Part shown: positions 47,985 through 59,900 of the stretch, piece after piece
How positions within the stretch are numbered: the stretch's first letter is position 1
How the letters are laid out: every line of letters begins with the position of its first letter
Origin: Muricea muricata
Lineage: Eukaryota; Cnidaria; Anthozoa; Malacalcyonacea; Plexauridae
Reading direction: 5' to 3'
Assembly (NCBI GenBank): GCA_963855995.1
Contig: OY979718.1
Coordinates: 25,534,282-25,598,281 of the forward strand
Length of the DNA stretch: 64,000 nt
Made by a program: the position numbers and the translations under genes
The notes under the pieces: generated by a model
What the model saw: the letters and a program-made list of their open reading frames with translations, nothing else
What the model was told of the DNA's origin: nothing
The model's database searches: none

Positions 47985-50900
47985 ATGCCAGCTGCTCAGA
48001 AAAAGAGCAAAGGAGGAAAACGAGGTTCGAAGAAGTCGACCAACAAAAAGGGATTAAAGGGACTTCAAACCATTAGCGCGTTGTTGAAAAGTCTCAGAAT
48101 ACAATATGATGTAAAATGTAAAGATGAACAAAGTTTCGCTCTCCCTGATGTCAAAAATTCTATCAAGGAATATGAAGAAAAATGCGAATTCTTAGTAAAG
48201 GTAGGACTTCATCTTGGATAGCTTTGTTATTAGCTAATTTGCTAAATATCTAAAAGGATTACATCATGGCCACCATTTGACACCTTGGAAAATTCAGTAA
48301 CTACTCACAATACTTTTCCTACTATAGTTTGTTTTATACCCTGGTCCCTGTGAAGACTGCCCAGTGAAAGTATCTCCGCTGTTGTCAGCTTTACGCAGCA
48401 CCAGATATGTCTATATCAAAGAGCTTTATATTTGGGATCTTCCAATGAAGCATGAAGATGTCGCCACTTTGGTAAGTAACCGATGGGGTTTATGCTTTGT
48501 TCTTTTGGCTTTGTTGTACAATAATTGTTATATATATAAGTATAATATAGGTATACAATAAATCAGTGGCAGATGTAGCGTAAGTCAAAATAAATTACCG
48601 CTGCTCATTCTAGGATATATTTACATAAAGTTATTTTGAATTTAAAATTGAGCTGCTATAATTTATGTTGACTTACCCTGGATCCGCCACTGCAATAAAT
48701 AAATAAAGGACCACAGTCTTACTTTAGTATTGCCGACTCAATTTCCTTTTGGCGGCCATTTTGTTTGGGGCATCTGGAAAAACTAATTTTATAATCCGTC
48801 GTATATCTTTTATAATATACCGTCGTATATTTTTTATCTGATTCTTTCTTTTGACTGTTGTGAAGGTAATTTCTCGTTATGTGTTATGCTTATATAACTT
48901 ATGCCAATTAGCTACCAATTACAGCGTGGGAATTAGGAAAAATTCTGTTTCCTCATATCTAATGCAACACCTTGCCTTGGGTGCAAGGTTGCCAAACAAG
49001 AAACATATTAACATAACAAGTTTTACCGAACAAATTAAAGATGTTGGTATCTTCTTCGGAATTCTATCTTGATTTCACTGAATATTGTAGTTGAATTGCG
49101 TCGGCTTTGAAGTATCGTTATCTTTCATGTTAGTGGTCAGCCAGGTGTAAGTTTTTAATCATCTTTACTTGTTTTTAAGGCTTTGTTTTTAGAGAGAGGA
49201 ATATATCGCGTCCAGTATTTGGAGTTGATGAGTTGTTCAATTGAAAGTTATGCTGTGCAAAGGCTGGGAAGGTAGGGCTATTATATATATACAGGCCGTT
49301 TTAGACATCGCATTACCGTCGCGTCGAGTGCAATTCAAACTGTAGATAATAAAGTGATGAATTCTTTTAATTGTCTGTTTAATTACATTCCATGTGTCGA
49401 AAATGTGACGTCTGAAACGAGCCTAAAAGGTATAGAGACAGGCTGAATTGGATTGCATTTTTATACACCCCCATGTAGACAAAGCAAGCAATTGGTGCAT
49501 GTTCCTTATGGGCTCAGCTATTATAGACACTCGGTTTCTTTTAAATTTTTAGATCGTTTTTGTTGAACTGTATAACGGCACTCTTGCTTGATTATAATCA
49601 GTAAGTAGTAGATACATTATAAGTTATGCATGTTATACATTGTTTTGTGAAGACCCTGGTTACATTTTGCATGGTCACGATAACAAATTGAAAAGTTTCA
49701 AGCTGGAATACCACAAAAAATTCCAAATTTCATTTTTTTTGTAAAAACTATAAAAAGAACTTTTTTATGAAATATAAAATTATTGCTTAGGCTTAAATGT
49801 TCTCTTTATTTTTTTAAAAGTACATCGAAAACGGAGAAATTCAGTTTAGTCTGTAATTCGTTCACAGGGCAAAGCCTTGGTTTTACTCAGAACAAAAAAA
49901 CAACAACACACGATTAGTTCATTTTTCTGCTTTTATTGTTCTATTATATTGTGTCATGTAAATTAGTGTATCTATCTGCTCGTTCAAACCTATATCAAAA
50001 GAAAGCAATTTGCCAAGAACGTAAAATATCTTAGCTTTGATTATTTCATTTATTGTACCATGATGTATAGATTTGGCGATGACGGCTGTGAAGGACTGTG
50101 TCGCGGATTGAAAAATAACAAGACTTTACTGAGATTAAGCTTGAATTACTGTAATCTTAGTCCAGTGTCTGGTCGAGTTTTGGGAGAACTCTTGACAGAA
50201 ACAGCTGTGTGGTAAGTATAAAAATATAGAATTCACGTTCAGAGACAGCGCATTATTTAAGAAGGTTGAATATTCGTTCCTGTATAAAAATACACGTAAA
50301 AGATGAAAATGGATAAAAATAAGAAATGTAGCTACATCATAAATACTGCGAAAACAGACATACAGTACAGAAGAAAAAGAAGTAAAACACGAAATTAGAC
50401 CATGTCAATGTCTGAGGGCATCAAACAAAGGCAGATATATTCAGCATTAAATGTATAGCAAAAGCATTCATGGATGCCATGCAATGCCAAGCATAGCAAA
50501 AGCATTCATGGATGCCAATAAGGCGCATCTTTTATTTCTGGCTATCGTTGCTACCAGAAGAAGTGAGGCAGAGCATGATTATGCTGTCACTGGAGTAGTA
50601 CTGTCCGGCCACTATAGCGGCGGAAGTAATTGGTATGCAAGATGGCGGCGGTCTTATTATAGATTCAAGATGACATCATAGGAGGAATGACGTCGTAAGG
50701 TAGGGTTAGTGTACCCTAGGTGTAAAAAAACACACAGAGAGATAGTTTTTGAAATGTTGTATTTTAAAAAAGCGATTAACATAGTATTTAAATGTAAAAA
50801 ATGTGTATTATACAAATGAACGAAAACTAAATGTTCATATGTAAACTAAACGTTCGTGAAGCGTAACTGTTCGTAAGTATCCCGTGAGATCTCCCGTGAG

Positions 50901-56900: not shown

Positions 56901-59900
56901 GCAATCTAAAAGTCTTATCTCTGTGAACGTTGCAAGCGGTATGCTCTTACCGACTCAAATTTATCATTTTATACTATTAGCAGGATAACTAAAAACCAAT
57001 CAGATTTTAATATGGTATGTTTCATATGTGCTCGGCCATCGGGCCACATAGGGCCTTATGAGCGTATGAGCATGTGCTCATGAGCAGTTATGAGCACAGG
57101 CTCATCTGCTCATCGCATAAACTTGTACGAGATTAACAAGATAAAGCTCTTCTGTCTGTGATACTCACAAAAATAAATTATTCCAAACGTTAATCCTTGT
57201 GTTAATTTATGCAAACCAAGAAAAGCTTTAATATTTTTCTCCAAAATCAGTACGATTTCGTATTCTTCATACCCCCTTTATCTCCCTTTTCGACAAAAAA
57301 CCTCAATGTTATAAAAATAATTTATGACATACAATTCAGCAAAATGAAACACTCACCTAAAAGGTCACTGAGTTTCAACTCGCAAATGCAATAATATGTT
57401 CTCCGTACGTTCTAAATAACCATATGAGGAATTTCGCTTGTTCCCTAATCCTAATGCATTCGCTTCAGCCAGTCAAATGCGGACCAATCATAAACCATCA
57501 AATCTAACGTGAGATCTCACGGGAGATATCACGTCAAATCTCACGGGAGATCTCACGGGATACTTACGAACAGTTACGCTTTACGAACGTTTAGTTTACG
57601 TATGAACATTTAGTTTTCGTTCATTTATATAATAAACATTTTTTACATTTAAATATTATGTTAAACGCTTTTTTAAAATACAACATTTCAAAAACTATCT
57701 CTCTTACCGCTGCCAGCTCCTCAGAGGAGGAAAATTTAAGCGTCGAAATAAATGAAATTCTGGTGTGTATAAAATTTGTAAACAGTCTTGTACATTCTGG
57801 TAGTCACAATTGCTGCTGCAAACCTACATAAACAAATTCTTTCCCTCTTTAGGAAAACCTATTGAAAGACGACCCCTTTGGGAACACATTTAATACTTTG
57901 GTAAGAAACTGTGTAATAGATCCATAACATCAAACATTCAGTACTAAACTTCCCCCTCTTTTCTTTGTAGAATGAATAAAAAGGAATACTATTATTTTAA
58001 AACTTTTAATATTTGCTACAATTATTTAAATAACACTGTATTTTTCAGAAGAATTAAAATAAAATTTAAATCAGTGTATTTCTGTATAATCTTTGTTCAA
58101 TATACTGAAATCTCACGGGAGATCTCACGTCAAATCTCACGGGAGATCTCACGGGAGATATCACGTCAAATCTCACGGGAGATCTCACGGGATACTTACG
58201 AACAGTTACGCTTCACGAACGTTTAGTTTACATATGAACATTTAGTTTTCGTTCATTTGTATAATAAACATTTTTTACATTTAAATACTATGTTAATCGC
58301 TTTTTTAAAGTACAGCATTTCAAAAACTATCTCTCTGTGTGTTTTTTTACACCTAGGGTACCCTAACCCTACCTTATGACGTCATTCCTCCTATGATGTC
58401 ATCTTGAATCTATAATAAGACCGCCGCCATCTTGCATACCAATTACTTCCGCTGCTATAGGGGCCGGACAGTACTACTCACTGGCAACCATACCAACCAA
58501 CCAAATCATTATTTCAGACAGGTTGTTGATTCATGTATTGCTAAATCTCGATGTCGAGGCCTCAACAATGACATGAAATTTTCTAAACCGCTGACCAATA
58601 TTCTTACCAAACGTGAATCAATCATTTTCGGTTATGAAAATCTCAGCCCTCTGTCCTTTTCTGCTGGCAATGATATCCGCAAAATTTTTCAAAAATTTAT
58701 TTGCTGCTTTCCTGTGTTTGTGTCATGCAGGTACACTTGCACATTGATTGTGCTTCATTTCTGCATTGCTTTCTGTATTTTTCCCTTTCCCCTCTTGTGC
58801 GCTCTGTTTGTCCCCATATTATATTATTTAGTTTGATTTCCTTTCTTGTTAACACTTTGTTTTGTTTAAATGCATCTGATTGATTTGTCTCGTCATGCAC
58901 ACGATTCACTTGACAGTATTCACTCGTATAAAAACTTGCGTTTTCACTTGAAGGGTTGAAACAAGGGCTTGGCTCCAAGCATTTCATTTCTGCTGTGCCT
59001 GCATTTTGGCAGTAAAAGATCCCATAGTTTTGTTGTGTTATTGATGCTCCTCGAGCGTATCTTACATGCGCTAGGAATAGACAGTGAAGTGCTAGTATCG
59101 TCAAGTAAAAATTTGGATGGTTCGAATAATTTTCAGTTCATTTACAGTTCATTTTCAGGACATTACGTAAGGTGAAAGAAACGTTTGCTTGTAAAATATT
59201 AAAAGCGTCATTTGTGTAATTGGAGCCAGTACCTTTCTATATATATATATATATATATATATATATATATATATATATATATATATATATATATATATAT
59301 ATATATATATATATATATATATATATATATATATATATATATATATATATATATATATATATATTATATATATATATATATAATTGTGCAAAATACCTCA
59401 AAAACTTACCACTACAGTCTGTTTCATCCAAAGGGAATCTTCAGGTGGTAGACCTGGTCTCTGTCTATATGTCATTGAGCACTCTTTTGTATTTCGCTAA
59501 CCAAAACTAGCACATTATATATATATATATATATATATATATATATATATATATATATATATATATATATATATATATATATATATATATATATATATAT
59601 ATATATATATATATGTATCTATTTTTCACCTTTTTTTAACAAACTTTACAGCGATATTTACCTTGATGGGAACCATTTGGAATGCGAAGGTGTTATTGAG
59701 ATGATCAAATTACTAGCCGACAAAGCTGAAATGGAAGCAATTGAAAAGGCCGAGAAAAAAGAAATTTCGGATTCTGGTCCAGTCAGCAAACCCATGTCTG
59801 CAGTATCGCAAATGTCAGGGTCCGCTACTGCCCTTAATGGTGATCAACCCTCAGATGTCTCTGAGAGCCTAAGGTAATTATTGAAGAGATGCGTGTCAGC

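What the first reader, a model, noticed from the sequence alone, without database searches (positions are those of the whole stretch)
50593..58479. Unclassified 7.9-kb giant palindromic element with a zinc-finger gene
Precise ends, a 4-bp ACTG duplication, about 2-kb near-identical arms and an intact zinc-finger ORF indicate recent movement. Yet no known transposase is visible. Genes duplicated in both arms plus one unique central gene is an unusual design.
Basis: partly seen in the sequence, partly recalled or inferred. Interest (0 to 1): 0.85.

Follow-up and report, generated by a model that had tools for sequence, protein, structure and literature searches.

The report
Palindromic satellite of Maverick elements
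This piece of animal DNA looks like a small mobile element that owns no moving machinery but carries the kind of end signals used by much larger virus-like Maverick elements of the same genome, which probably move it, much as a satellite virus depends on a helper.

Summary
The element is real, but its ends, its duplication and its 'unclassified' status need correcting. One base further in on each side gives an exact 6-bp target duplication, CACTGG, and ends 5'-AGTAGT...ACTACT-3', the features published for vertebrate Mavericks/Polintons. Relatives in the same genome repeat this: exact 6-bp duplications in 6 of 8 copies with both ends read, window included. The key link: one 30-bp Maverick end bounds 17 elements of 12.4-17.0 kb, 8 with a listed polymerase, and 6 elements of 6.1-9.1 kb, each with the zinc-finger gene. 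So zinc-finger elements exist in Maverick-bounded form, and the window copy is best read as a non-autonomous Maverick satellite. Its own helper was not found: 0 of 31 window-type ends lie within 20 kb of a listed polymerase. The zinc-finger gene is under purifying selection. The arms of one element evolve together. The 'unique' centre is mostly a 3,001-bp insertion at TTAA, in the zinc-finger stop codon; relatives show the empty site. New variant of a known kind.

The parts
50588..50593 (.). left target-site duplication CACTGG
58479..58484 (.). right target-site duplication CACTGG
50594..58478 (.). whole element, 7,885 bp, with Maverick-type termini
   Evidence: end motif compared with PMC8097293
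50594..50599 (+). terminal motif AGTAGT, (AGT)2
58473..58478 (+). terminal motif ACTACT, (ACT)2
50594..51527 (+). outer left arm; in full length seen only here among the matches listed
57547..58478 (-). outer right arm
51552..52351 (+). inner left arm, shared with a high-copy family
56304..57113 (-). inner right arm
50736..50942 (+). direct repeat A; partner 51370-51527; right-arm copies 57498-57704 and 58130-58336
50880..50976 (+). tandem 12/36-bp repeat TCCCGTGAGATC
   Evidence: the 8-mer CGTGAGAT occurs 9 times in the element and 0 times elsewhere in the window
51543..51616 (+). near-palindromic C repeat rich in TGAGCA/TGCTCA; others at about 52273-52343, 52402-52471, 52523-52580, 56300-56383, 57039-57113
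51763..52059 (+). coiled-coil gene, left-arm copy (98-codon frame, no ATG start here)
56597..56893 (-). coiled-coil gene, right-arm copy (early in-frame stop)
52634..53206 (+). zinc-finger gene (C2HC-type finger), 190 aa, intact, the conserved gene of the family
   Evidence: Pfam zf-C2H2 19.2 bits, below its cut-off of 25.2
53203..53206 (.). TTAA duplication, left; its TAA is the zinc-finger stop codon
53207..56207 (.). nested 3,001-bp TTAA-flanked insertion, ends GAGGAGATTTTTTA
   Evidence: empty sites in L077 and L079
56208..56211 (.). TTAA duplication, right
57170..57497 (.). segment without counterpart in the left arm; up to about 57291 it belongs to the module shared with relatives

Best explanation
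A non-autonomous satellite of Maverick/Polinton elements. SHOWN: it has the published Maverick end motif and an exact 6-bp duplication; other members of its family in the genome show the same; six members of the zinc-finger family have the same 30-bp terminal sequence as 12-17-kb elements of the same genome, of which 8 of 17 hold a listed protein-primed polymerase and one copy was read to hold an rve integrase. INFERRED: the helper's polymerase copies the element from its ends and the helper's integrase inserts the copy, leaving 6 bp duplicated; the element keeps the ends, a small coiled-coil gene and a conserved zinc-finger protein that probably binds DNA of the element or the helper. SHOWN: the two arms of one element are more alike than arms of different elements, and small deletions can be present in both arms at once. 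INFERRED: during replication the displaced single strand folds back on its inverted ends, so one arm serves as template for the other, which would create and maintain the palindrome and explain genes present once per arm.
For: 6-bp duplication and (AGT)2/(ACT)2 ends in the window, as described for vertebrate Mavericks in PMC8097293 (passages, section 7). Starting from an internal motif, 10 of 14 ends of seven relatives were found; all 10 begin AGTAG, 9 of them AGTAGT. Exact 6-bp duplications in 6 of 8 copies with both ends read, against 0 of 56 mismatched flank pairs. Genome-wide pattern of ends: 33 matches at 31 places, 0 for the reversed control; 15 of the 31 lie within 6 kb of a listed zinc-finger gene. 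Maverick end AGTAGGTATGGTGCAGGTATAGAACACTTA: 58 matches, control 0; 23 pairs, of which 6 of 6 under 10 kb hold a zinc-finger gene and no listed polymerase, and 0 of 17 over 12 kb hold a listed zinc-finger gene while 8 of 17 hold a listed polymerase. Two of the short ones (L073, L074) carry 1.87 kb of the helper's left end at 94%, the helper's TIR at the other end and the zinc-finger module, with exact 6-bp duplications, as has the helper (3 of 3). Helper integrase: rve 49 bits (cut-off 32.6) plus chromodomain; polymerase family over cut-off. Zinc-finger gene: dN 0.26-0.29 with dS saturated in 18 deep comparisons; dN/dS 0.10-0.12 in the 3 of 18 where dS could be computed. Arms: 1.20% within an element, 2.83% when shuffled, 0 of 20000 shuffles as low; a 43-bp deletion in both arms of L020 and in no other of the nine elements printed.
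Against: The helper of the window's own end sequence was not found. 0 of 31 window-type ends lie within 20 kb of a listed polymerase. A 13.2-kb pair with 80% similar ends exists (C2:64272049-64285272), but it holds no listed polymerase and the integrase search did not complete. Five other loci with window-type ends, first 6 kb each, showed no helper protein by tblastn, and no zinc-finger gene either. 2 of 8 copies lack the duplication, and 4 of 14 ends were not found. Between close copies dN/dS is only 0.38-0.81, and dS above 2 is unreliable. Three copies lie inside larger palindromes with other outer arms, so the module may also spread by routes not understood here. One subfamily copy (L048) begins GGTAGT, not AGTAGT. 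No movement was observed.
Confidence: 0.85

Rival explanations
1. The zinc-finger and coiled-coil module (about 2 kb in L073) is itself an independent mobile element that keeps landing in or between Maverick ends; the Maverick ends are only its surroundings.
For: The module has recurrent edges near window 57291 in several copies and inverted C repeats around it in L073; it occurs with at least three kinds of ends.
Against: Target duplications lie at the AGTAG ends. In L048 the palindrome arms hold parts of a Maverick accessory gene. The module's own edges were not tested for duplications.
Confidence: 0.13
2. A cut-and-paste transposon of an undescribed superfamily; the zinc-finger protein is part of its own transposase.
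For: The zinc-finger gene is the best conserved gene of the family and is under purifying selection; no fold match for it.
Against: Short zinc-finger elements share a 30-bp terminus with polymerase-bearing Mavericks. The protein is 190 aa with one zinc finger and helices; no catalytic domain was recognised.
Confidence: 0.05
3. A foldback element of the Drosophila FB/Galileo kind, whose long inverted repeats arise by recombination.
For: Long inverted repeats with internal tandem repeats.
Against: Target duplications are 6 bp; FB and Galileo make longer ones (recalled). Termini are those of Mavericks.
Confidence: 0.02
4. A local inverted duplication of host DNA, not a mobile element.
For: The outer arms 50594-51527 in full were seen only here among the listed matches.
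Against: Exact duplication, Maverick ends, and many dispersed relatives.
Confidence: 0.01

Closest known systems
Maverick/Polinton (self-synthesising transposon, virus-like)
   Same: 6-bp target duplication; (AGT)2//(ACT)2 ends; long inverted repeats; accessory genes of Mavericks occur in related satellites L073, L074, L048.
   Different: No polymerase, integrase, ATPase, protease or capsid match in the element; 7.9 kb with the nested insert, against 12.7-24.6 kb for intact vertebrate Mavericks; arms of about 2 kb, against TIRs of 46-1,447 bp.
Satellite viruses / virophages
   Same: Small element that seems to depend on a larger virus-like element of the same genome and carries its own conserved gene (works-like comparison).
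   Different: No capsid or replication gene found; dependence inferred from shared ends, not observed.
Foldback / Galileo elements
   Same: Very long inverted repeats with internal tandem repeats.
   Different: Different target duplication length (recalled) and different termini.
TTAA-specific transposons (piggyBac, Kolobok, Sola3; names recalled)
   Same: Only the nested 53207-56207 insertion: TTAA duplication and short inverted ends.
   Different: The surrounding element itself has no TTAA duplication.

Membership tests
Maverick/Polinton, autonomous | 6-bp target-site duplication | tested here: met
   6 of 8 copies including the window
Maverick/Polinton, autonomous | conserved terminal motif such as (AGT)2//(ACT)2 | tested here: met
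Maverick/Polinton, autonomous | protein-primed family B polymerase gene | tested here: not met
   no match in the element to the N-terminal 388 aa of the helper polymerase; no Pfam match of the five ORFs scanned
Maverick/Polinton, autonomous | rve integrase gene | tested here: not met
   no match in the element
Maverick/Polinton, autonomous | ATPase, protease and capsid genes | tested here: not met
   no match in the element with helper ORFs so labelled by eye
Non-autonomous Maverick derivative | terminal sequence shared with an autonomous Maverick of the same genome, at family level | tested here: met
   6 short zinc-finger elements share the helper's 30-bp end
Non-autonomous Maverick derivative | terminal sequence shared with an autonomous Maverick, for the window copy itself | tested here: inconclusive
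   one 13.2-kb pair with 80% similar ends, gene content unread; 0 of 31 window-type ends near a listed polymerase
Non-autonomous Maverick derivative | mobilised by Maverick proteins | not testable with these tools
   needs an experiment
Ginger1 | CCGG or CCGT duplication and TGTNR ends (PMC2836005, passages) | tested here: not met
Foldback/Galileo | P-type transposase and longer target duplication (recalled) | tested here: not met
   6-bp duplication; no transposase among the ORFs scanned

The most novel reading that the evidence does not exclude
A long-lived lineage of true satellites of Mavericks in an animal: its hallmark gene, a 190-aa zinc-finger protein, is kept by selection while the ends are exchanged to match different Maverick families; the zinc-finger protein controls the element or its helper, possibly restraining it, and the palindrome is a product of protein-primed replication. 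If Mavericks make particles, the satellites might travel in them.
Probability: 0.4. Interest if true: 0.88.

Novelty: new variant of a known kind. Interest (0 to 1): 0.74.

Why it matters
Satellites are well known for phages and giant viruses. Here a high-copy family in an animal genome carries Maverick ends, shows none of the Maverick core genes tested in the copy studied, and keeps a gene of its own under selection. That would make Mavericks, whose virus nature is still argued from capsid genes, hosts of satellites, and it gives sequence handles (paired ends, identical helper termini, arm homogenisation) to test how Mavericks replicate and integrate. In the papers searched no 'nonautonomous Maverick' or 'non-autonomous Polinton' is named (0 papers for six such phrases); most subscription papers and Repbase were not searchable.

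Tried and rejected
First idea, an outer Maverick-ended element around an independent inner transposon: weakened when relatives showed the same kind of ends around the whole; kept as a rival. IMG/VR scans with the zinc-finger protein, its alignment and the terminal 18-mer: no relative. tblastn in phage records: one weak match, E 0.6. Fold searches of the zinc-finger model (pLDDT 73.5, single sequence): 0 at E <= 0.001 of 187 viral and of 31 PDB matches. PDB sequence search: only C2H2 finger proteins. Coiled-coil model too poor to search (pLDDT 55.7). Exon-like pieces in the outer arms (near 51130-51360, minus strand) were seen by eye and not pursued. Empty site of the window insertion in the own genome: none; 2 of 11 matches are the flanks themselves, 9 a repeat on the right. 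The deep dN/dS rests on 3 of 18 pairs; the rest were saturated. Of the copies in L009-L028 those with stops or incomplete matches were left out, and several sequences stop at codon 182. The lists themselves are cut (150 of 777 and 82 of 504 candidates scored), so absence is not proof. In one search one copy (C2_696) had two possible left ends, and the one giving a 6-bp duplication was counted.
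Full report
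WHAT IS THERE. The window lies in an animal genome: it holds part of a Rubicon gene (PF21054, E 2.4e-16) and belongs to an assembly of 453,007,491 bases in 74 contigs, position C3:25534282-25598281. Between 50594 and 58478 lies an inverted-repeat element. Random 6-mers of this window agree with frequency 0.0005. The arms are 97.9% (outer, 934 vs 932 bp) and 96.3% (inner, 800 vs 810 bp) identical ungapped, with direct repeats and extra segments that break the symmetry.

THE NESTED INSERT. 53207-56207 is a 3,001-bp insertion flanked by TTAA with inverted ends GAGGAGATTTTTTA. The left TTAA contains the stop codon of the zinc-finger frame. Relatives L077 and L079 continue through a single TTAA at that place, followed by the same polyadenylation-like AATAAA. 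So the zinc-finger frame was not cut, and the large unique centre of the element is mostly a later passenger.

THE MAVERICK MOTIF. The paper PMC8097293 (passages, section 7) states that vertebrate Mavericks commonly end 5'-(AGT)2//(ACT)2-3' and that intact ones carry 6-bp duplications; intact ones are 12,723-24,620 bp with TIRs of 46-1,447 bp. The window element has these ends and this duplication but none of the helper genes tested: tblastn with nine helper protein queries (ATPase, protease, two capsid-like, integrase, two accessory proteins, GRF finger, N-terminal part of the polymerase; several labels given by eye) matched nothing in it at E 1e-3; only the family's own zinc-finger and coiled-coil proteins did.

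A FAMILY IN THE SAME GENOME. The left 2 kb of the element matches many places (184 matches, 40 of 690 candidates scored), nearly all listed ones in the inner arm. The zinc-finger protein matches at least 150 places (150 of 777 candidates scored), the 13 best without any stop. Starting only from an internal motif, I found 10 of the 14 ends of seven relatives; all 10 begin AGTAG, 9 with AGTAGT; 4 were not found. Three further copies (L029 and two like it) sit inside larger palindromes with other outer arms. Of 8 copies with both ends read, 6 have exact 6-bp duplications: CACTGG, AGTGGC, TGTATA, GACCAG, CAGAAG, AGTGAC; 2 have none. None of the 56 mismatched flank pairs agree. A genome-wide pattern for the ends gives 33 matches at 31 places and 0 for the reversed control. 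15 of the 31 have a listed zinc-finger gene within 6 kb; 0 of 31 have a listed polymerase within 20 kb.

THE HELPERS. The genome holds many protein-primed polymerase genes (178 matches, 82 of 504 candidates scored, many frames of about 1,300 aa). Two copies of one Maverick, 99.86% identical over 5.1 kb, begin at the same point, AGTAGGTATGGTGCAGG. A piece read in a third copy has an integrase with rve (49 bits, cut-off 32.6) and a chromodomain. The 30-bp end occurs 58 times, control 0. I paired the ends: 23 pairs. All 6 pairs shorter than 10 kb contain a listed zinc-finger gene and no listed polymerase; of 17 pairs of 12.4-17.0 kb none contains a listed zinc-finger gene and 8 contain a listed polymerase (both lists are cut). 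Two of the short elements, L073 and L074, have exact 6-bp duplications (ATGCGG, TTTGAG), as has the helper (ATCCAC); they carry the helper's left 1.87 kb at 94%, its terminal repeat at the other end, and between them the zinc-finger and coiled-coil module. This is the strongest evidence that zinc-finger elements move with Maverick machinery. A more distant subfamily (L047, L048; zinc-finger protein about 60% identical) starts AGTAGTATAG in L047 and GGTAGTATAG in L048, and the arms of L048 each hold part of a Maverick accessory gene at 63-65%.

THE ZINC-FINGER GENE IS KEPT BY SELECTION. Across subfamilies dN is 0.26-0.29 while dS is saturated; in the 3 of 18 deep comparisons where dS could be computed dN/dS is 0.10-0.12, with dS above 2 and so only rough. 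Among close copies it is 0.38-0.81, as expected if many copies decay after insertion. The alignment of eight shows a C-x2-C-x12-H-x4-C finger, with the first cysteine changed in one copy (L048), and a C-terminal domain predicted helical. Pfam's zf-C2H2 match is below its cut-off (19.2 vs 25.2 bits). No structure or viral relative was found beyond the finger itself.

THE PALINDROME. In 16 elements with both arms, the arms of one element differ by 1.20% on average, against 2.83% (s.d. 0.19) when partners are shuffled; 0 of 20000 shuffles are as low. L020 has a 43-bp deletion in both arms, absent from the other eight elements whose gaps were printed; a 24-bp deletion is in both arms of L009 but in one arm of L014 and one of L016, and may recur. 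So arms are copied onto each other. My inference is that this happens when a displaced single strand folds back on its inverted ends during protein-primed replication, as recalled for adenovirus-like genomes (one search gave only listings). Some family members are not palindromic (L073, L074, L077), so the palindrome is a state the element can enter, not its definition. The window copy itself has rather divergent arms (22 of 604) and both coiled-coil copies look damaged.

WHAT IS NOT SHOWN. The exact helper of the window's end sequence. Its TIR matches a 13.2-kb pair at 80% over the first 86 bases and a 4.7-kb zinc-finger element at 96% over bases 42-141; the genes of the 13.2-kb pair I could not read, and no listed polymerase lies in it. 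Five loci with window-type ends gave no Maverick protein in their first 6 kb. Movement, packaging and the role of the zinc-finger protein are inferences.

LITERATURE. Six phrases such as 'nonautonomous Maverick' gave 0 papers; wider searches listed none that names such satellites in the titles and abstract starts shown. PMC4028283 (passages) mentions an old proposal that Tlr elements are non-autonomous Polinton derivatives, which it disputes. PMC2836005, PMC6431247, PMC12220804 and PMC10120064 were seen only as passages. Repbase and most subscription papers were out of reach, so priority is not established.

Noticed in passing
window 53207-56207: Nested 3,001-bp TTAA-flanked element with about 2.2 tandem copies of a 395-bp unit; its genome-wide copy search did not complete.
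   Followed up: partly
window 38342-38518 (-): A stretch 41% identical to the part of the helper Maverick integrase just before its chromodomain (E 6e-8).
   Followed up: no
window 30652-31140 (-): Rubicon PI3K-binding domain: a host autophagy gene.
   Followed up: no
window 5678-7264 (-): 529-aa open frame, membrane-protein-like by eye, no Pfam match.
   Followed up: no
window about 58514 onward: The right flank soon becomes a dispersed repeat (9 other places, 77-85%).
   Followed up: no
L029:8172: Maverick-like sequence starts exactly where the right arm of this palindrome ends (AGTAGAATAC...), with accessory-gene matches downstream; probably a Maverick inserted into the arm.
   Followed up: partly
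L084: An element of 9.3 kb between window-type ends is enlarged by a nested non-LTR retrotransposon (endonuclease and reverse-transcriptase-like 971-aa frame, by eye).
   Followed up: no
L077:3441-4493 (-): 351-aa gene of unknown family in a non-palindromic satellite; a related frame is in L081 by eye, so satellites carry other cargo.
   Followed up: no
window 51130-51360 (-) and right-arm counterpart: Exon-like pieces with splice-site-like borders in the outer arm, ending in a polyadenylation-like signal (by eye).
   Followed up: no
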